Positions 8,052-47,516 of a stretch of DNA of 47,745 nucleotides are shown here, one piece after another. Each line of letters begins with the position of its first letter. The first letter of the stretch is position 1. The notes beneath the pieces were generated by a model. It had not been told where the DNA came from. It worked only from the letters and a program-made list of their open reading frames with translations, and did no database searches. The translations under genes and the position numbers were made by a program. Source of the DNA: Phormidesmis priestleyi ULC007 (GTDB lineage: Bacteria; Cyanobacteriota; Cyanobacteriia; Leptolyngbyales; Leptolyngbyaceae); NCBI RefSeq assembly GCF_001895925.1, contig NZ_MPPI01000039.1:1-47745 (forward strand). Direction: 5' to 3'.

Positions 8052-10628
8052 TTACTTCCTTGAAGTTGATGATGAAGACTCGGACAGTCGCTTTTGCAGT
8101 TCTGCTTTGTATTCCTGAAGTTGTTTTACATCGGTGGGAGAAGCGTTCTTAATCATTCTATCCACGATTTCAATAGCACTGCTCCAGTCTTTCTTGTCTG
8201 TTGCTATTTTTAGGGCAAATCGAAGCTCTTCTTGGTTAGGAATGGATGAGATAGGCGGTAATTCTGTTATTCGCTTTAATGGTTCAACCTGCGGTGTTGG
8301 TTTTACTAATTCACTCGGATTTGAATTCGTGTTTCCGTTAGGATTCCGATTATTTCCTGGAGGTAGGTTTTTGGGAGGATTTTTCTGCCCAGATTTGAGC
8401 ATCCATTGTGGTAGCTGCTCTAAATTCACCTCATTTCCAGCTTTGGGAATCTTAAGTGTCCAGATATTAGCACCTTGTGCAGATAGAGTCATTCTGAACG
8501 TACCTGTTGCCCCACTCGTTTTGTCTGTTTTAATTTTGCTTCTCTTGCCATCCAATAGCACTTCGTCTGCACTTGCTCCACCCACTATCAAACCATCTGA
8601 CATCTTTTCTCCATCAAGTCTGATGAAGCAGCTTCCAGGAGTAGGGTTTTGTGTTTCCATATAAAACCAACCACTCCTTGTATTGAGAGTTCCCAACAGA
8701 GTTGCTTTTGCTGGTTTTCCATTCAGTTGATAAGAAATTTCTTCACCTCTGAAAGAGTTGCCATTTTGGGTAATTTGGGCAGATGAACCTCCAGTAATAA
8801 TGCAAGCGGCTGGAGGTAAAGGATTCGGTTTAGAAATTGGGACAGAATACCCTTGATAGTTATAATCAGGTGTTTTCCACAAACTTAAGAAAATTGCCCC
8901 TACTGTACCTATAAGAATTGGGGGAATTAGATGGGATTCTGGGCGCTTCAAACCCAAGAGCAGACCTAAATTATGGCGAGTGACAGCAGCACCATTGCGA
9001 TCGTCTAACTCTTCCCGTAAAGCAAGTGCCTGAGTCAGGCAAGTATAGGCTATGTCGGTATCACCCAAACAGAGTGCCCGACTGCCCTTTTGATGAAGTG
9101 CCCAAGCCTCAGATGCCCGATCCTTTAGGTTTTTTGCAGCCTCTAACTCCCAATTCAAGACCTCTTCCCAGGCACCCCATTGTCCATTCAAGGCAAGCGC
9201 CCCCTCTAGTCCGCGACCCATTTGTACAACTTCTTCCCAACGCCCCCCATCAACAGCCGATTCCAAAAGGTTAAAAACTGCATCAGATTCTTTCAGCACA
9301 ACATCAGGCTGCATTTGATTCTGTTGCATCCAGTCATTGAAATATGTAGTGGCTTTGTCTCGCCAGGGAACTAAGTCCCACTCGGAGCCAAGTGTTTCGC
9401 TGTTTTTGAAAACTGCTTTGAGAGGTTCATCTAAACTGTAGCGAGAACCGTCAGATTGAATAAGACCATTTTGGAGCAAGGAGTCTAAGTGATATTTCAC
9501 CTCAGTAGCTGACAGATCCATTGATGAATTGCCTTTTGGTACAGATGTTGTAGCATCTGATTTAACTTGGGCGACGAGAAGAGTTAAACCTGTTATTCCT
9601 AAAACGGCTAAGACTTTCAAAATTCGTCGTGCTGGTTTCGGTAAAGAATTCAGCATTTTTAAGACTGAAGAAGGATCAGAGAATTCTGAGCTTGGTGCAT
9701 TTGCAATTTCCTCGGCAATCTCTTCCAGTCTTTTGTCATCCTTCCTAGCTTTTCTCACAGCTTCGCGGATTTTTCCAGGATTTCCTTTCAGAAGAATACG
9801 CAGTTTTTCAACTGCAAGACGATCCTGATCGCTATCTAAAGGATCTTCTTCGGCAGAGAATTTTCCTGTATTCCATTCTTGTCTTGCTAGTTCCAAAGCT
9901 TCATCAGCAGGCATTCCTTCTAAAGGAATGCTTTTGTCACCATCTTTTTCTAAGCAGCGTTTGGGAGAGGCGAGAACAAATTTAGAACCTCTCATATGAT
10001 CACGTAGAAACAATATGCTCTCTCGTGAAAGTCGAACATCATCCAGTAAAACAAGAGCCTTTTTGCCACCTAATCGGGTTCTGATTTCGGCGTTGGTAAA
10101 GTAAGTATGAGATTTGACTCTATAAAAAATGAAAAGAATTGCTTGAAGCAAGTCAGATACAGTTCGATATTTCCCTGCGTCACGAAATACCACCCCATCA
10201 GAAAAACTAGTCGTAAGCTCACTGTGATTGGCTAAATGGCGTAGAAGAGTTTCTCTGTCGATTTTAGCTTCTCCATAAAATTCAAGAATTTTTTTGGACT
10301 GAAGTTCAGTGATCACTCCCTCAACTTCTTTTCTGCGTCCTACCAAATTGAGGGGAGCTGGCAGGAATCTTTCACGCTCAGTACGAGGGCGATTTCTTAG
10401 TCGTTCCTTACTCCAGGCAAGAATTTTAAGTACTTTGCCTCCGTAAGTGATATTGAACTGTATTATAAATTTACCAACAGCTATCTGACCGCTATTGTTG
10501 CCCTGATTATTGAGGGTAGTGGAAGACGAAGGAACTTGAGATCGAGGAGATGTTCCTGCTGCTTTAGTAGATTCAGAATTAGCTGATTCAACCTGTCCTT
10601 CAGTGTTTGGCTGAGATTCTTGAGTCAT
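8052..10628 (-). CDS. STAND/NB-ARC-like protein with degenerate P-loop and C-terminal extracytoplasmic region
   Basis: The product is 858 aa. Residues 1-60 are disordered and contain NNSGQIAVG, a motif shared with the divergent neighbour. Residues 95-260 resemble an NB-ARC/STAND ATPase: LVGRRKEVEGVI, a P-loop-like site FYGEAKIDRETLLRHLA in which the usual Gly-Lys-Thr has become Arg-Glu-Thr, then DGVVF and an intact Walker B KKALVLLDDV (189-198). A winged-helix-like region (330-410) and a TPR-like region (450-560) follow. One transmembrane helix is predicted at 566-584, then a beta-rich domain and a Pro/Asn-rich linker, ending in a helical hairpin (800-850). STAND proteins act as switch-like sensors in conflict or signalling. 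Losing the P-loop lysine suggests little ATP hydrolysis or a pseudo-ATPase. Confidence 0.7.
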   Translation of the reverse strand: MTQESQPNTEGQVESANSESTKAAGTSPRSQVPSSSTTLNNQGNNSGQIAVGKFIIQFNITYGGKVLKILAWSKERLRNRPRTERERFLPAPLNLVGRRKEVEGVITELQSKKILEFYGEAKIDRETLLRHLANHSELTTSFSDGVVFRDAGKYRTVSDLLQAILFIFYRVKSHTYFTNAEIRTRLGGKKALVLLDDVRLSRESILFLRDHMRGSKFVLASPKRCLEKDGDKSIPLEGMPADEALELARQEWNTGKFSAEEDPLDSDQDRLAVEKLRILLKGNPGKIREAVRKARKDDKRLEEIAEEIANAPSSEFSDPSSVLKMLNSLPKPARRILKVLAVLGITGLTLLVAQVKSDATTSVPKGNSSMDLSATEVKYHLDSLLQNGLIQSDGSRYSLDEPLKAVFKNSETLGSEWDLVPWRDKATTYFNDWMQQNQMQPDVVLKESDAVFNLLESAVDGGRWEEVVQMGRGLEGALALNGQWGAWEEVLNWELEAAKNLKDRASEAWALHQKGSRALCLGDTDIAYTCLTQALALREELDDRNGAAVTRHNLGLLLGLKRPESHLIPPILIGTVGAIFLSLWKTPDYNYQGYSVPISKPNPLPPAACIITGGSSAQITQNGNSFRGEEISYQLNGKPAKATLLGTLNTRSGWFYMETQNPTPGSCFIRLDGEKMSDGLIVGGASADEVLLDGKRSKIKTDKTSGATGTFRMTLSAQGANIWTLKIPKAGNEVNLEQLPQWMLKSGQKNPPKNLPPGNNRNPNGNTNSNPSELVKPTPQVEPLKRITELPPISSIPNQEELRFALKIATDKKDWSSAIEIVDRMIKNASPTDVKQLQEYKAELQKRLSESSSSTSRK

Positions 10629-42653: not shown

Positions 42654-44273
42654 ATGAGCTACTGCTTGAATCCAGTCTGTCCACATCCTGAAAACCTCAT
42701 CCACACTGAAGCGTGTCAGGCTTGTGGCTCTAAGCTATTGTTGAGCGATCGCTTTCGGATTCTGCACGCGCTTGGTCAAGGGGGCTTTGGCGCAACCTTT
42801 CTAGCCCGCAACGAAAAGTTACCCGGTCAGCCCAACTGTGTGATAAAGCAATTACGTCCCACTGCCACTGCCCCTCACATTTTGCAGATGGCACGAGATT
42901 TGTTTGGGCGAGAAGCCTGCACCTTGGGAAAGATTGGCAACCATCCCCAAATTCCTCAGTTGTTGGACTATTTTGAGGCAAATCAAGAATTTTATCTAGT
43001 TCAAGAATATATCAGTGGGGCAACGCTGCAACAAGAAGTTAAGCGAGAAGGCACATTTGGCGAATTAAAAGTCAAGGTCTTTCTGAGCGAAATTTTGCCT
43101 ATTCTGCAATATATTCATAGTCATCAAGTCATTCACCGTGATATTAAGCCTGCAAACTTAATTCGGCGCTCTCACGACTGCAAATTGGTATTGATCGACT
43201 TTGGAGCGGTCAAAAATCAGGTGAGCGATTTGAACGCTAGTCTTTCAGAACAAACAGCCCTCACGTCTTATGCGATCGGCACCCCTGGTTTCGCTCCACC
43301 CGAACAGATGGCGATGCGTCCGGTATATGCCAGCGACCTCTATGCGCTAGGAGTCACCTGCATCTACTTGATAACAGGAAAATCTCCTAAAGATTTAGAC
43401 TACGACCCCGCAACGGGAGAGTTAGTCTGGCAAAAACAAGTCCAGGTGAGCGACCACTTTGCCAAAGTTCTCAGAAAAATGCTAGAAGTCTCAGTTCGTC
43501 ACCGCTACCAGTCGGCAAACGAGATTCTGCGAGATCTAGATTTGGAACCCTACTTAGAAAGTCTGGCAAGCGGTATGACTAACGTGCCATCTCAGCCAAA
43601 CACTGTTGGGCGCAAGCGAGGCGACCCTTCTGGGCCTGACTCTCAAGATTCTTCCGCTTCTCCCAATGCTCGTGCTGCAATGGCAATCAGAGCACGCCAG
43701 ACTCGCACTGAATCGACCAGCCTTCAGTCTGGGCAGACTCGCGGTCGCGTTATGGCAACTAAGCCATCAGTTTCAGGAGCTAAAAGCCGCGACTCTGGAG
43801 GGCGCACCGGAAACTCTGGAGGAGGGCAGTCGAGCAGTTCACCTAAGCTAGATTCTCAAGGGTTACAGAGCTACTACAGCAAAGGGAAACGAGATTTTGC
43901 TTCTTATGATTTGACGGAGTTGATTCTGACGAGAGTCGATTTATCGAATGCGGTTTTCCATCAGGCAAACTTGCATAAAGTCAATCTTCATGGAGCCAAC
44001 CTGATTAGCGTTAACTTTGGACGCGCCAATCTCAGTCACGCCAACTTACGTGATGCCAACTTGACAAAAGCTTATCTCAGCAACGCTGACCTAGAAGGTG
44101 CAGACTTACGCGGAGCCAACTTGAGTAGCGCTTACCTACTCAACGCAAACTTGCGAGGTGCTAACCTCTGTGGCGCAAATCTCACTGGGGCAAAGTTGAG
44201 TCAAGAGCAGTTGACGATGGCACGAACGAACTGGATGACTATCAGACCCACAGGGAAACGCGGAATTTGGTAA
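42654..44273 (+). CDS. SpkB-like serine/threonine kinase with Cys4 motif and pentapeptide repeats
   Basis: The 539-aa protein has an N-terminal Cys4 motif (C4, C9, C21, C24), then a Hanks-type kinase domain (about 34-300) with ATP loop GQGGFGATF, Lys65 in CVIKQL, HRDIKPANLI (Asp163) and DFG at 182-184. A Ser/Gly-rich linker (305-410) precedes pentapeptide repeats (about 425-525) of the A(D/N)LxxA type, such as LSNADLEGADLRGANLSSAY. This architecture is known from Synechocystis SpkB, which is linked to oxidative stress. It is followed by a terminator at 44399. Confidence 0.9.
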   Translation: MSYCLNPVCPHPENLIHTEACQACGSKLLLSDRFRILHALGQGGFGATFLARNEKLPGQPNCVIKQLRPTATAPHILQMARDLFGREACTLGKIGNHPQIPQLLDYFEANQEFYLVQEYISGATLQQEVKREGTFGELKVKVFLSEILPILQYIHSHQVIHRDIKPANLIRRSHDCKLVLIDFGAVKNQVSDLNASLSEQTALTSYAIGTPGFAPPEQMAMRPVYASDLYALGVTCIYLITGKSPKDLDYDPATGELVWQKQVQVSDHFAKVLRKMLEVSVRHRYQSANEILRDLDLEPYLESLASGMTNVPSQPNTVGRKRGDPSGPDSQDSSASPNARAAMAIRARQTRTESTSLQSGQTRGRVMATKPSVSGAKSRDSGGRTGNSGGGQSSSSPKLDSQGLQSYYSKGKRDFASYDLTELILTRVDLSNAVFHQANLHKVNLHGANLISVNFGRANLSHANLRDANLTKAYLSNADLEGADLRGANLSSAYLLNANLRGANLCGANLTGAKLSQEQLTMARTNWMTIRPTGKRGIW

Positions 44274-44469: not shown

Positions 44470-44712
44470 TCACTCGCCCGTTACCAATTCTTCTACTGCC
44501 GGATCAAACACAATCTCATAGTTTCCGATCGGGTTCAGCCGCTTCAACACCCGCAAATGTTCCGTCGCATCATTCCGCCGCCGAAACCGAGCCACCACAC
44601 GGCGCTGCATCTTTGGCAAAAGCTGAATAATGCACCAAGGAGACAAACGATCGCGGTAACTCCGCACAAAACTGTCACCAACCGTTGCTGACGGCTGCGA
44701 TGCTGATATCAT
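44470..44712 (-). CDS. small conserved cyanobacterial protein
   Basis: The start is placed at 44712 (MISASQPSATVGDSFVRSYR, 80 aa), because a strong GGGAGGT ribosome binding site lies just before that ATG. The core, DRLSPWCIIQLLPKMQRRVV followed by ARFRRRNDATEHLRVLKRLN, is a pattern I recognise from many cyanobacterial hypothetical proteins. It is positively charged in the centre, suggesting contact with nucleic acid or acidic partners. It diverges from the XRE-type gene by 125 bp. The function is unknown. Confidence 0.7.
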   Translation of the reverse strand: MISASQPSATVGDSFVRSYRDRLSPWCIIQLLPKMQRRVVARFRRRNDATEHLRVLKRLNPIGNYEIVFDPAVEELVTGE

Positions 44713-44837
44713 ATGGTTACCTCCCGTAATGGGATAAGAAGTAGCGATCGCTCTCAAGTTTTCCAGGCGAAAAGAGCGATCGCTTTTCAATGTACAACAA
44801 TTATTAAATGTCGCATACGCGTCATTGTCAAGTCTGA

Positions 44838-45047
44838 ATGGGGCTAGTTAGGCTAAAAATTCGAGAATTAGCTGACAAGCGAGGCTGGACTTTGAAAGAA
44901 GTGTCCGAACGCTCAGGCGTTAACTACAGCACAGTCAGAAGTTATGTTCAGCGTGGTGAGTTGAATACTGTTGATTTGAGTGCGGTTTATAAGATTGCGA
45001 AGGCTTTTGGGGTGACGATCGATGATTTGGTTGAGGTGGTGGAATAG
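44838..45047 (+). CDS. XRE-type helix-turn-helix regulator
   Basis: The 69-aa protein is almost entirely one HTH_3/XRE domain: LKIRELADKRGWTLKEVSER followed by SGVNYSTVRSYVQRGELNTV and KIAKAFGVTIDDLVEVVE. The recognition helix is near 27-36. Small proteins of this kind repress their own or nearby promoters. It diverges from the 80-aa gene and may control it. The reading frame after the TAG stop stays open for 28 more codons with protein-like content (see findings). Confidence 0.85.
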   Translation: MGLVRLKIRELADKRGWTLKEVSERSGVNYSTVRSYVQRGELNTVDLSAVYKIAKAFGVTIDDLVEVVE

Positions 45048-45176
45048 GGGGCGATCGAACTCTTACAAAGACCTGACGGTATCAAGTACATAGATCCTTC
45101 TAAAGGCAAAAAACACGCCGAGTCGGAACATTAATACAAGTCTTAAAAACAGGCTGAAGCTACCGGACATTACAGT

Positions 45177-47516
45177 CTACAAGTCGCAGTTTGAGAGAAG
45201 AGAGACGTGTTCCATCCAACGCCCACGCGTCAACTTTACCCCAAGCCGCGGAAGATATCCCCTCGGAGAAGAGATATCATAAACTACCTTCGTATACTTA
45301 CCCTTTTCCATCCAACCGTTAGTGTTACAGAAACTTTCCCATGCCTCCGCATGATACTGCCCGTCAACAATGCCTCCGCACTCTAGATATAATTCTTTCT
45401 GAACACTAAAGCCAAACCGACCCTCGCTATACTTTACCCACAACCGATCAATATTCAACAACTCCTCACGCGGAAAATTCAGCAAGTGCTCTGGCTCAAA
45501 CCACTCCCCCTCTTCCTTCCCCACCGTCATAATCATCAATCGATACGTTTCATTATCCGCCTCTTTCCACTGCTGGTCTTTCAGAAATTCCTCTAGCTTT
45601 TGATACCGAGAACTTAGCACCTTTTTCTTAAGTGCCTCAAACTCTTGCAACAACGGCTGCTGGTTCACTGTGAATTCCTCCAGATGTCGGTATCGATGAA
45701 TCAGCAGCTTTTCTTTGAGCGACCCTAACTCTTTCACCAAAGCCGGATCGATTCGCTTTGTCGTCTCCTGCAAGCAAACATACGCTAAATCCGCTGCCCC
45801 GCGCTCCGTCATCTCTCGGATCAGCTTTCCAGGGTTCACTAATCCCGCATACAACAAAATCACCTGCTTCCACCAATCCTCCCCCAACTTCTCATACAGC
45901 AAACTCTCCTGCCCCAACCGAGCCACCTCCTCCGCCGCCAAATACTCCTGAAAACTCAGATGAGCAAACTCATACTCATCCTCCTGCTCGATCACCAACT
46001 CACTCACCTGCACCACCTGATCGAGAAACTCCACAGCATCAATGGTTTCACCCTGCACTGTCAAATATCCTGCCAGCCGTTCCACTAGCTCTCTACGCTC
46101 CACCCGCCCCTCTTTTTTCTGCATCATCTCCAGCGCCAGCATCTGCAAAATCACCTGCGCTCCACACTCCAACAGCAGCGTCTCCAACTTTCTCGCCCCA
46201 GGGCGATCCTTCAATTGCAGCCGACAAATCTCCTGATATAGCTCCACCCGTCGCCTTGGCAACTCCGCCCCCGGAAACCGCCGATGAAACGTCACAATCA
46301 TCGTCAGCAAAAGCGGATTCTTCGCCAAATCCTTCAATTCCGATCGCGCCTCAATCTGCGCCAAAAGCTCATCTGCGGCAGATTGCGCGGCTTGTTTGAC
46401 ATCCGGCGTATCTCGTCCACTGTTCGCAAACCGCTCTTGATATCGATACCAACTCTCCACAAAATCCCGACGCTGCCCCTGATTAAAATCACGCACCCAA
46501 ATCGGAGTCGTCATCTCTAGACGATCACCTGCATCCTGCTCTCTATAAGCTTTAGGGCGCGAAGTCAGAATAAATACCGAATCTCTATATCGCCGCATCT
46601 GCTCATTTAACCACTTAGCCAGAGCAGGTCTTTTAGCTTTCTCCACCTCATCAAACCCATCCAACATCACCACCACATCGCCCCGCCGAAGGCTCTCCTG
46701 CGCCCAATTCACTGGCAGCTTCAATTCTTCATCAGTCGGCAAAGCAGGAATATGATGCAGCGTAATCAAATCCGCCAAATTGGGAGCATTCTCTTGAGTT
46801 AGCAAGTCACGATATTTCCGCAGCACCAACAGCACCGGGATTTTTTGTGACACTTGATAGCGTCCTTGTTGCTTATTCCCATAAGTATGAGCAACATGCT
46901 TAAGCAGCGTCGTTTTGCCATAGCCACCCCACGCCAAAATCACCATCTGCCGCAGCATCGGTTCCGCTTTTGTTCGCTTCAACAACTCCCAAATTCGCAG
47001 CTTGCCCGATCGAATACTTGCAGCATCGTCCGCACCCTCCATTCCCCGAAACCCTGGAGCGATCGCGCTACTGTCCAATTCGAGCGGCACAAACACCTCT
47101 TCCAAAAGCGGAGTTCCCAAATCAGACTGGCGAACTCCTTCAGGGCGATAAGCCTGACAATCCCACGCCTGACACTGAAGATACTTATCCTCACCCTGCG
47201 TTACTTTAGCGATCGTTCCCTGAGCCAGACTATCAATCCGATCGTTAATCACCTCTCCTGCTTTCGCCAATCGCTTCTCATTGCCCCGATGAATCGGTTC
47301 CAGCAATTTTGCCCCATAAGAGAAACCAAACCCGATTAGAGCGGAAGCGATCGCCTTAGCCACATTCGTTTCAAAAATCAGAGAGTAAAGCCCATAAACA
47401 CTACCAACCCCAACCCCTCCCGGCTTGATAACCCTAATCAAAAATTCTACCACCTCCTGCACAATGGAATCTTTTTCAGGCTTGGCTTCAGGTCGATCGA
47501 GTGATTCTTGCGGCAT
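45177..47516 (-). CDS. NACHT NTPase with C-terminal GUN4 domain
   Basis: The 779-aa protein has a predicted membrane hairpin near 33-70, a NACHT domain (about 185-420) with Walker A GGYGKTT (197-203) and Walker B VVVMLDGFDE (281-290), and FAHLSFQEYLAAEE (517-530). A coiled, Lys/Glu-rich stretch (595-645) leads into a GUN4 domain (about 640-779): EADNETYRLMIM, NIDRLWVKYSEGRFGFSVQK, and SSPRGYLPRL. GUN4 proteins bind porphyrins, and NACHT proteins are switch-like NTPases used in signalling and defence. The fusion suggests a membrane-bound switch with a tetrapyrrole-like sensor; the ligand and output are inference. It is 161 bp downstream of the 5S rRNA 3' end. Confidence 0.88.
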   Translation of the reverse strand: MPQESLDRPEAKPEKDSIVQEVVEFLIRVIKPGGVGVGSVYGLYSLIFETNVAKAIASALIGFGFSYGAKLLEPIHRGNEKRLAKAGEVINDRIDSLAQGTIAKVTQGEDKYLQCQAWDCQAYRPEGVRQSDLGTPLLEEVFVPLELDSSAIAPGFRGMEGADDAASIRSGKLRIWELLKRTKAEPMLRQMVILAWGGYGKTTLLKHVAHTYGNKQQGRYQVSQKIPVLLVLRKYRDLLTQENAPNLADLITLHHIPALPTDEELKLPVNWAQESLRRGDVVVMLDGFDEVEKAKRPALAKWLNEQMRRYRDSVFILTSRPKAYREQDAGDRLEMTTPIWVRDFNQGQRRDFVESWYRYQERFANSGRDTPDVKQAAQSAADELLAQIEARSELKDLAKNPLLLTMIVTFHRRFPGAELPRRRVELYQEICRLQLKDRPGARKLETLLLECGAQVILQMLALEMMQKKEGRVERRELVERLAGYLTVQGETIDAVEFLDQVVQVSELVIEQEDEYEFAHLSFQEYLAAEEVARLGQESLLYEKLGEDWWKQVILLYAGLVNPGKLIREMTERGAADLAYVCLQETTKRIDPALVKELGSLKEKLLIHRYRHLEEFTVNQQPLLQEFEALKKKVLSSRYQKLEEFLKDQQWKEADNETYRLMIMTVGKEEGEWFEPEHLLNFPREELLNIDRLWVKYSEGRFGFSVQKELYLECGGIVDGQYHAEAWESFCNTNGWMEKGKYTKVVYDISSPRGYLPRLGVKLTRGRWMEHVSLLSNCDL

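What the first reader, a model, noticed from the sequence alone, without database searches (positions are those of the whole stretch)
45177..47516. NACHT NTPase fused to a GUN4 (porphyrin-binding) domain
A signalling/defence-type NTPase with a membrane segment carries GUN4, a domain otherwise known from tetrapyrrole synthesis control. It could be a switch that senses a porphyrin or a pathogen-linked change in it. It also follows directly behind an rRNA operon.
Basis: partly seen in the sequence, partly recalled or inferred. Interest (0 to 1): 0.7.

Follow-up and report, generated by a model that had tools for sequence, protein, structure and literature searches.

The report
Bacterial NLR-like protein with hypervariable tail
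This cyanobacterial gene encodes an immune-receptor-like protein (NACHT plus GUN4) whose last stretch differs, seemingly at random, even between close relatives, just before a conserved DNA signal that carries stop codons in all three reading frames, which looks like an unrecognised way for bacteria to diversify receptors.

Summary
The NACHT-GUN4 fusion is real (window 45177-47516, minus strand) and belongs to a widespread cyanobacterial family. The porphyrin-switch idea is not supported: a known porphyrin-contact Phe is Val here, and the segment with the key Arg is absent.

What replaces that segment is the main result. After the GUN4 motif G-x-L-P comes a G/T-rich DNA stretch of variable length (mostly 20-100 nt, all three frames), then a conserved 121-nt DNA element with stop codons in all three frames. 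Between relatives sharing 80-90% of GUN4 nucleotides, the variable stretch is no more alike than shuffled sequence, while the element stays 76% identical. The stretch is kept open in frame. The same module ends caspase-, TIR- and FGE-GUN4 proteins. A certain HUH (REP-associated, IS200-like) transposase gene usually lies just beyond such an element, convergent (43 of 62 strong matches, median 34 nt).

Best reading: an NLR-like receptor with a junctionally diversified C-terminal tail, possibly cut by the HUH enzyme. Hypervariability is shown between species only; mechanism and immune role are inferred. The window's own genome has no match to the HUH gene and its element is eroded, so this copy may be dormant.

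The parts
45177..47516 (-). NACHT-GUN4 protein gene, 779 aa plus stop
47217..47516 (-). N-terminal 100 residues: weakly hydrophobic helices (about 18-70) and start of a long helix; presumed effector or membrane-associated part
   Evidence: (pLDDT under 50 here)
46446..46928 (-). NACHT domain (residues 197-357)
   Evidence: Pfam PF05729; NLR folds
46902..46931 (-). Walker A, WGGYGKTTLL (residues 196-205)
   Evidence: invariant in the 9 sequences; conserved
46644..46676 (-). Walker B, VVVMLDGFDEV (residues 281-291)
   Evidence: M284 and D286-V291 invariant; conserved
45249..45611 (-). GUN4 core (residues 636-756), ends at PRGYLP
   Evidence: Pfam PF05419
45201..45248 (-). variable region (48 nt): codes RLGVKLTRGRWMEHVS
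   Evidence: 52% identical to the closest relative's 61 nt, equal to shuffled (51%)
45078..45200 (-). three-frame-stop DNA element (about 121 nt); its first stop triplet (45177-45179) is this gene's stop codon
   Evidence: model R1, 46.8 bits, E 7.6e-5 in the own genome
47675..47745 (-). probable 3' part of a 5S rRNA gene, cut by the contig end
   Evidence: Rfam 24.3 bits, below gathering score
47628..47657 (.). hairpin between 5S rRNA and the gene

Best explanation
It is a bacterial NLR-like receptor whose recognition end is a GUN4 scaffold with a hypervariable C-terminal tail. Shown by sequence: NACHT NTPase core; GUN4 core that stops before the porphyrin-binding arginine segment; then a G/T-rich variable region of changing length and frame; then a conserved 121-nt DNA element with stop codons in all three frames, so that a tail of any length ends properly. 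Inferred: the variable region is rewritten by a DNA-level process that adds non-templated, G/T-rich nucleotides (sometimes duplicating flanking bases) at a junction fixed by the element; the convergent HUH/REP-associated transposase found next to many copies is the best candidate for the enzyme that nicks there, acting in cis or in trans. Also inferred: the tail binds an invader- or stress-derived ligand, the NACHT core switches, and the N-terminal helices act. In the window's genome no match to the HUH gene was found and the element is eroded, so this copy probably no longer changes.
For: Element in 27 of 42 genomes of the GTDB family (E<=0.1) and 140 of 388 of the class (E<=1e-4). 121 of 140 pattern-found element instances have a recognisable GUN4 core upstream. 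Frame of the element relative to GUN4: 34/43/44 of 121. Variable region G 0.37, T 0.34, A 0.16, C 0.13, against A 0.28, C 0.19, G 0.27, T 0.27 in the GUN4 coding part, and similar at all three codon positions. 109 pairs with 80-90% GUN4 identity: variable region 0.47, shuffled 0.45, element 0.76. Window against closest relative: GUN4 0.82, variable 0.52 (shuffled 0.51), element 0.82. Internal stop in frame: 4 of 121, shuffles 66; among regions up to 100 nt 3 of 111 in frame, 53 and 56 of 111 in the other frames. Stops in all three frames within 60 nt: 103 of 120 elements, shuffles mean 29.6, maximum 42; kept in frames not in use (76 of 87 and 68 of 77). No second copy of one 86-nt variable region in a one-contig genome, only short matches at E 0.26 or worse. 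3 of 112 regions are tandem repeats. HUH gene: of the 62 strongest matches in the class (E<=4e-90, the query itself included) 43 lie within 500 bp of an element, median 34 nt, 43 of 43 on the opposite strand, 42 of 43 downstream. Contrast (one pair only): GUN4 fusions L116/L118 without the element, 91% GUN4 identity, keep 85% after the same motif.
Against: No within-strain or within-species data: one genome per species. Pairs share members and are not independent. Some close pairs keep the region (L061/L068, 0.89). Instances were found with a loose pattern; the nine regions longer than 110 nt include spurious hits (L063 is counted twice). Of the 19 instances without a GUN4 core 16 were looked at: 6 do end in GUN4, the rest are cut, frame-broken or spurious. 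15 of 42 family genomes have no element. 30 of 42 family genomes, the window's among them, have no match to this HUH subfamily at E<=1e-10 although many of them have elements. 7 of the 62 strong HUH matches were tied neither to GUN4 nor to a contig end. A second type of Y1 transposase sits at the same place in L078 and L081, which fits a transposon aiming at the site. That an HUH enzyme adds non-templated bases is not known to me (recalled). Stop triplets at 22-24 exceed the independent-column expectation only modestly (109 against 101 of 120). Anti-phage function untested.
Confidence: 0.62

Rival explanations
1. Tetrapyrrole-sensing STAND switch: GUN4 binds a porphyrin and tunes NACHT signalling to photosynthetic status, as proposed in general terms for GUN4 fusions by Kaur et al. 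2020. (Odds of the rivals overlap: they are not exclusive.)
For: Clear GUN4 domain; the literature proposes it for GUN4 fusions (PMC7159879, passages); 49 of 76 family sequences keep Tyr at a loop position of the own canonical GUN4.
Against: Phe196 site is Val here and Phe in 18 of 76; the Arg214 segment is replaced by the variable tail. A fixed ligand does not explain a hypervariable tail.
Confidence: 0.12
2. Neutral decay: the tail is useless, so its sequence drifts, and the element is just a conserved 3' region or terminator.
For: Tail disordered in the model (residues 741-779, pLDDT under 50).
Against: Close relatives are randomised in the tail but 76% alike right after it; one shared G/T bias; 117 of 121 open in frame; the one element-less pair looked at does not drift so.
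Confidence: 0.1
3. An IS200/REP-type transposon that targets 3' ends of GUN4 genes; the element is its end or target and the variable region is junk at the insertion junction.
For: HUH gene precisely placed; in L059 it is bracketed by two copies of the element's 3' end; HUH remnants beside elements; a second Y1 type at the same place in L078 and L081; in G320, 4 of 5 exact end-motif matches lie outside the listed elements.
Against: In four family genomes 8 of 8 exact end-motif matches lie at elements or the bracketing repeat; elements in many genomes without this HUH gene; three-frame stops and an open frame are kept.
Confidence: 0.2
4. A diversity-generating retroelement with an unseen template and reverse transcriptase.
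For: Conserved sequence right after a C-terminal variable region resembles the DGR layout; cyanobacterial DGRs diversify similar proteins (PMC7517822, passages).
Against: Length and frame vary; no template copy in the one genome tested; no reverse transcriptase recognised among the 25 largest neighbour clusters of 70 loci (by eye, no profile run).
Confidence: 0.06

Closest known systems
Bacterial NACHT / NLR-related proteins (bNACHT, STAND)
   Same: NACHT core with Walker motifs; best structural matches NLRC4, NOD2, NLRP3; three-part architecture as described for bNACHT (PMC12169576, passages)
   Different: C-terminal part is GUN4 plus a hypervariable tail; no known N-terminal effector domain recognised
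GUN4 (porphyrin-binding Mg-chelatase cofactor)
   Same: GUN4 core by Pfam and PDB sequence matches
   Different: Phe196 site changed, arginine segment absent, variable tail instead
Diversity-generating retroelements (DGR)
   Same: C-terminal hypervariable region followed by conserved DNA, in conflict-type proteins
   Different: variable length and frame, G/T-rich, three-frame stops, no template found in the one genome tested, HUH gene nearby
REP-associated tyrosine transposases (RAYT, HUH)
   Same: Y1_Tnp domain, NHxH motif; NCBIfam REP_Tyr_transpos 69 bits, under its cutoff of 80
   Different: tied mostly to one coding-gene 3' end instead of many dispersed intergenic REPs
V(D)J junctional (N-region) diversity of vertebrates (recalled)
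   Same: works like: transposase-derived site, random bases of random length, frame uncertainty
   Different: no homology claimed; bacterial; stop codons are supplied in all frames by the element

Membership tests
NACHT/NLR-related STAND protein | NACHT domain with Walker A and B | tested here: met
NACHT/NLR-related STAND protein | NLR-like fold of the core | tested here: met
   52 PDB matches at E<=0.001, NLRs on top; model pLDDT 67 from 9 sequences
NACHT/NLR-related STAND protein | N-terminal effector domain | tested here: inconclusive
   no Pfam match before residue 174; weak hydrophobic helices
NACHT/NLR-related STAND protein | anti-phage activity | not testable with these tools
   the PADLOC match (PD-T4-6) covers residues 585-757, the GUN4 part and the stretch before it, not NACHT
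Porphyrin-binding GUN4 | GUN4 domain | tested here: met
   E 3.9e-32
Porphyrin-binding GUN4 | Phe196 and Arg214 (Synechocystis numbering) | tested here: not met
DGR | template repeat matching the variable region | tested here: not met
   one genome only, G025; not tested in the window's genome
DGR | substitution at adenines, constant length | tested here: not met
   length and frame vary
DGR | reverse transcriptase nearby | tested here: inconclusive
   none seen among the 25 largest neighbour clusters; no profile search made
Phase variation by simple repeats | tandem repeat in the variable region | tested here: not met
   window none; 3 of 112 elsewhere
RAYT/REP system | HUH Y1 transposase gene beside the element | tested here: not met
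   no match in the window's genome at E<=1e-10; elsewhere 43 of 62 strong matches
RAYT/REP system | many dispersed REP copies | tested here: not met
   end motif 0-5 exact copies per genome in 10 genomes, none in the window's; in G320 4 of 5 lie outside listed elements

The most novel reading that the evidence does not exclude
Cyanobacteria have a reverse-transcriptase-free diversity-generating system: an HUH transposase relative opens a fixed site at the 3' end of GUN4 receptor genes, random G/T-rich bases of random length are added, and a dedicated element supplies stop codons in every frame, so NLR-like, caspase- and TIR-linked receptors get an endlessly renewed antigen-recognition tail, a bacterial analogue of V(D)J junctional diversity.
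Probability: 0.35. Interest if true: 0.97.

Novelty: categorically new. Interest (0 to 1): 0.87.

Why it matters
Known bacterial protein diversifiers use reverse transcriptase (DGRs), inversion, repeat slippage or cassette exchange (recalled). A tail that is renewed in length, frame and sequence, with a conserved element that makes every frame safe, would be a different principle, and it sits on proteins built like animal NLRs, caspases and TIR proteins. It turns 'what do GUN4 fusions sense?' into a testable question about a variable recognition tail, and gives a concrete enzyme candidate to test.

Tried and rejected
Porphyrin switch: rejected as the main reading because ligand residues are lost. 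Structured RNA: the element has no Rfam match at gathering score (five loci; the only match there is a tRNA) and almost no consensus fold (3 pairs, none with a double change), so it is treated as DNA. DGR: no template copy in G025, frame and length vary. Simple-repeat slippage. Many dispersed REPs. A conserved partner other than the HUH gene: in 70 loci the Y1 transposase cluster occurs in 23, and 21 of these begin 83-215 nt after the element's start; the cluster holds at least two Y1 types (L078, L081 and L120 differ). The next clusters (ABC-type, 9 loci; a DUF559-like nuclease by eye, 7 loci) looked incidental. I made no search of the viral, phage, plasmid or E. coli collections.

Limits of my counts: the 79 aligned sequences include the window's and come from the best matches that I fetched, not from all matches; 12 of 79 had no element at the loose threshold, two of them with contigs that end before it. 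One search used the 62 HUH matches with E<=4e-90 (one is the query itself) and the listed top matches (that listing was cut), plus one element (G218:C24) taken. Its 19 unpaired HUH matches: 15 inspected (7 beside a GUN4 gene, 3 at contig ends, 5 neither), two (neither), and two (G296:C468, G355:C9) beside NACHT-GUN4 matches. The first-look filters lose weak elements.

Literature: GUN4 with NACHT gave 8 papers, GUN4 with STAND 25, 'GUN4 domain' with cyanobacteria 7, GUN4 with diversity-generating 3, and two mixed searches (149 papers, 15 listed; 3 papers). I read passages, or for PMC8967248 two sections, never a whole paper; in what I saw none described a variable tail after GUN4. No bioRxiv papers and few subscription papers are held, so prior description cannot be excluded.

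Full report
What is there. The ORF at 45177-47516 (minus) codes 779 residues with NACHT and GUN4 domains. The window is one whole contig of a 5.68-Mb genome. Canonical GUN4 is elsewhere in this genome (L001), and a NACHT-GUN4 paralogue with about 44% identity lies on contig 112. The nearest named relative found is a Leptolyngbyaceae MAG (best segment 90%). The family is broad: 79 non-redundant near-full-length sequences, the window's included, were aligned. The modelled core (pLDDT 67) matches NLRC4, NLRP3 and NOD2 best.

The rRNA remark is right in part: a probable truncated 5S gene ends about 160 nt upstream on the same strand, at the contig end, and weakly so in the closest relative. The membrane segment is doubtful. 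The porphyrin switch is not supported: the Phe196 site is Val and the region of Arg214 is missing; both residues are reported to contribute to porphyrin binding in Synechocystis and Arabidopsis (PMC8967248, two sections read).

The tail. Aligning the family's ends showed that GUN4 stops at G-x-L-P and that three different-looking endings (such as SLASRLVNC, LFSRIETCEL, LLSHRDL) are one DNA sequence read in three frames. The DNA element is about 121 nt long (121 or 122 nt in 56 of 60 matches) and was modelled as R1 from 47 copies. Before it lies the variable region. In 67 of 79 NACHT-GUN4 genes the element was found with a loose pattern, in frames 19/21/27; over all GUN4 fusions held, 34/43/44 of 121.

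Hypervariable, not decayed. Among 109 pairs with 80-90% GUN4 nucleotide identity, the variable region is 0.47 identical, shuffled 0.45, the element 0.76; among 243 pairs with 72-80%, 0.48, 0.47 and 0.70. Pairs share members and are not independent, and one pair (L061/L068) is 0.89 alike. The window copy against its closest relative gives 0.82, 0.52 (shuffled 0.51) and 0.82. The region is G/T-rich at every codon position, with dinucleotides at 0.75-1.28 of expectation, is open in frame in 117 of 121 (66 stops expected from shuffles), and encodes Gly, Val, Leu, Ser, Phe, Arg and Trp above all. A few regions contain copies of their own flank: 6 of 112 a 9-mer of the preceding 40 nt (shuffled 0) and 2 of 112 an 8-mer of the element's start. 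As a contrast, one pair of GUN4 fusions without the element (L116, with a TIR domain, and L118) keeps its tail.

Three-frame stops. Element triplet 22-24 is TGA, TAA or TAG in 110 of 121, triplet 29-31 in 110 of 121, and the third frame stops mostly at 36 or 45. Stops are kept in frames not now used (76 of 87; 68 of 77). All three frames stop within 60 nt in 103 of 120 (shuffles 29.6, maximum 42). The excess over independent columns at 22-24 is small (109 against 101), so part of this reflects DNA conservation as such.

Where else. R1 matches 27 of 42 family genomes, 17 of 26 and 14 of 26 in two other genera, and 140 of 388 in the class. Nine GUN4 proteins with such a tail that I scanned carry caspase (5), TIR/SEFIR (1), trypsin (1) or FGE-sulfatase (1) domains, one no further domain; in the trypsin one (L255) the tail is there but no element passed the pattern, though the HUH gene is beside it. 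GUN4 fusions to kinases, caspases, trypsin and TIR are already in print (PMC7159879, passages), as is GUN4 in TRADD-N and ternary systems (PMC8195603, passages); the tail is not, in what I searched.

The HUH gene. Neighbour clustering of 70 loci found one strongly recurring neighbour, in 23 loci, convergent, 21 of them directly after the element: a Y1_Tnp transposase of REP-associated type. In the family, 12 of 42 genomes have the main subfamily. In the class, 43 of the 62 strongest matches lie within 500 bp of an element; of the other 19, 9 lie beside GUN4 genes, 3 at contig ends and 7 at neither. RAYTs act on single-stranded DNA with a GT[AG]G tetranucleotide next to hairpins (PMC6006769, passages); the element's consensus holds a GTAG at 28-31, a lead only. 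No match was found in the window's genome, whose element scores 46.8 bits against up to 123 elsewhere.

Mechanism. Shown: fusion, variable region, element, open frame, three-frame stops, HUH linkage. Inferred: diversification by nicking and non-templated addition, and a receptor role. Not excluded: a site-specific transposon with a side effect on the tail.

Noticed in passing
window 42654-44273 (+): Ser/Thr protein kinase with pentapeptide repeats, about 900 bases from the 3' end of the NACHT-GUN4 gene and convergent with it.
   Followed up: partly
window 44838-45047 (+): Small Cro/C1-type HTH gene right behind the element; next to it an ORF (44470-44790, minus) without Pfam match.
   Followed up: partly
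window 8052-10628 (-): 858-aa protein with weak NB-ARC and TPR matches, both below Pfam cutoffs: a possible second STAND-type protein on the contig.
   Followed up: no
G000 contig 112, L050:7777-10188 (-): NACHT-GUN4 paralogue in the same genome with its own tail and an eroded element (34.7 bits, E 0.01).
   Followed up: partly
L059 (G033 C89:20288-21353): HUH gene bracketed by two copies of the element's 3' end in direct orientation.
   Followed up: partly
L078, L081: A different type of Y1 transposase (NHYH motif) lies directly after the element, where other loci have the NH[VI]H type.
   Followed up: no
L116 and L118: GUN4 fusions without the element (L116 has a TIR domain; L118 was not scanned) whose tails are conserved (85% nucleotide identity over 60 nt): a non-variable branch.
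   Followed up: yes
L061 and L068: Pair with nearly the same variable region (0.89) although the element is only 0.65 identical: a recently fixed or inactive tail.
   Followed up: no
P0001 residues 585-757: PADLOC model PD-T4-6 matches the GUN4 part and the stretch before it (E 1.8e-29), so that defence model seems to include a GUN4-like end.
   Followed up: no
G163, G104, G257 and other genomes of family f2: Distant relatives (mostly 46-52% identity) of the HUH protein, in several copies in some genomes; the two loci fetched (L260, L261) showed no GUN4 nearby.
   Followed up: partly
L248: One variable region is G/C-rich rather than G/T-rich.
   Followed up: no
G320 contigs 79, 117, 128, 172: Four exact copies of the element's end motif outside the listed elements; what lies there was not looked at.
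   Followed up: no
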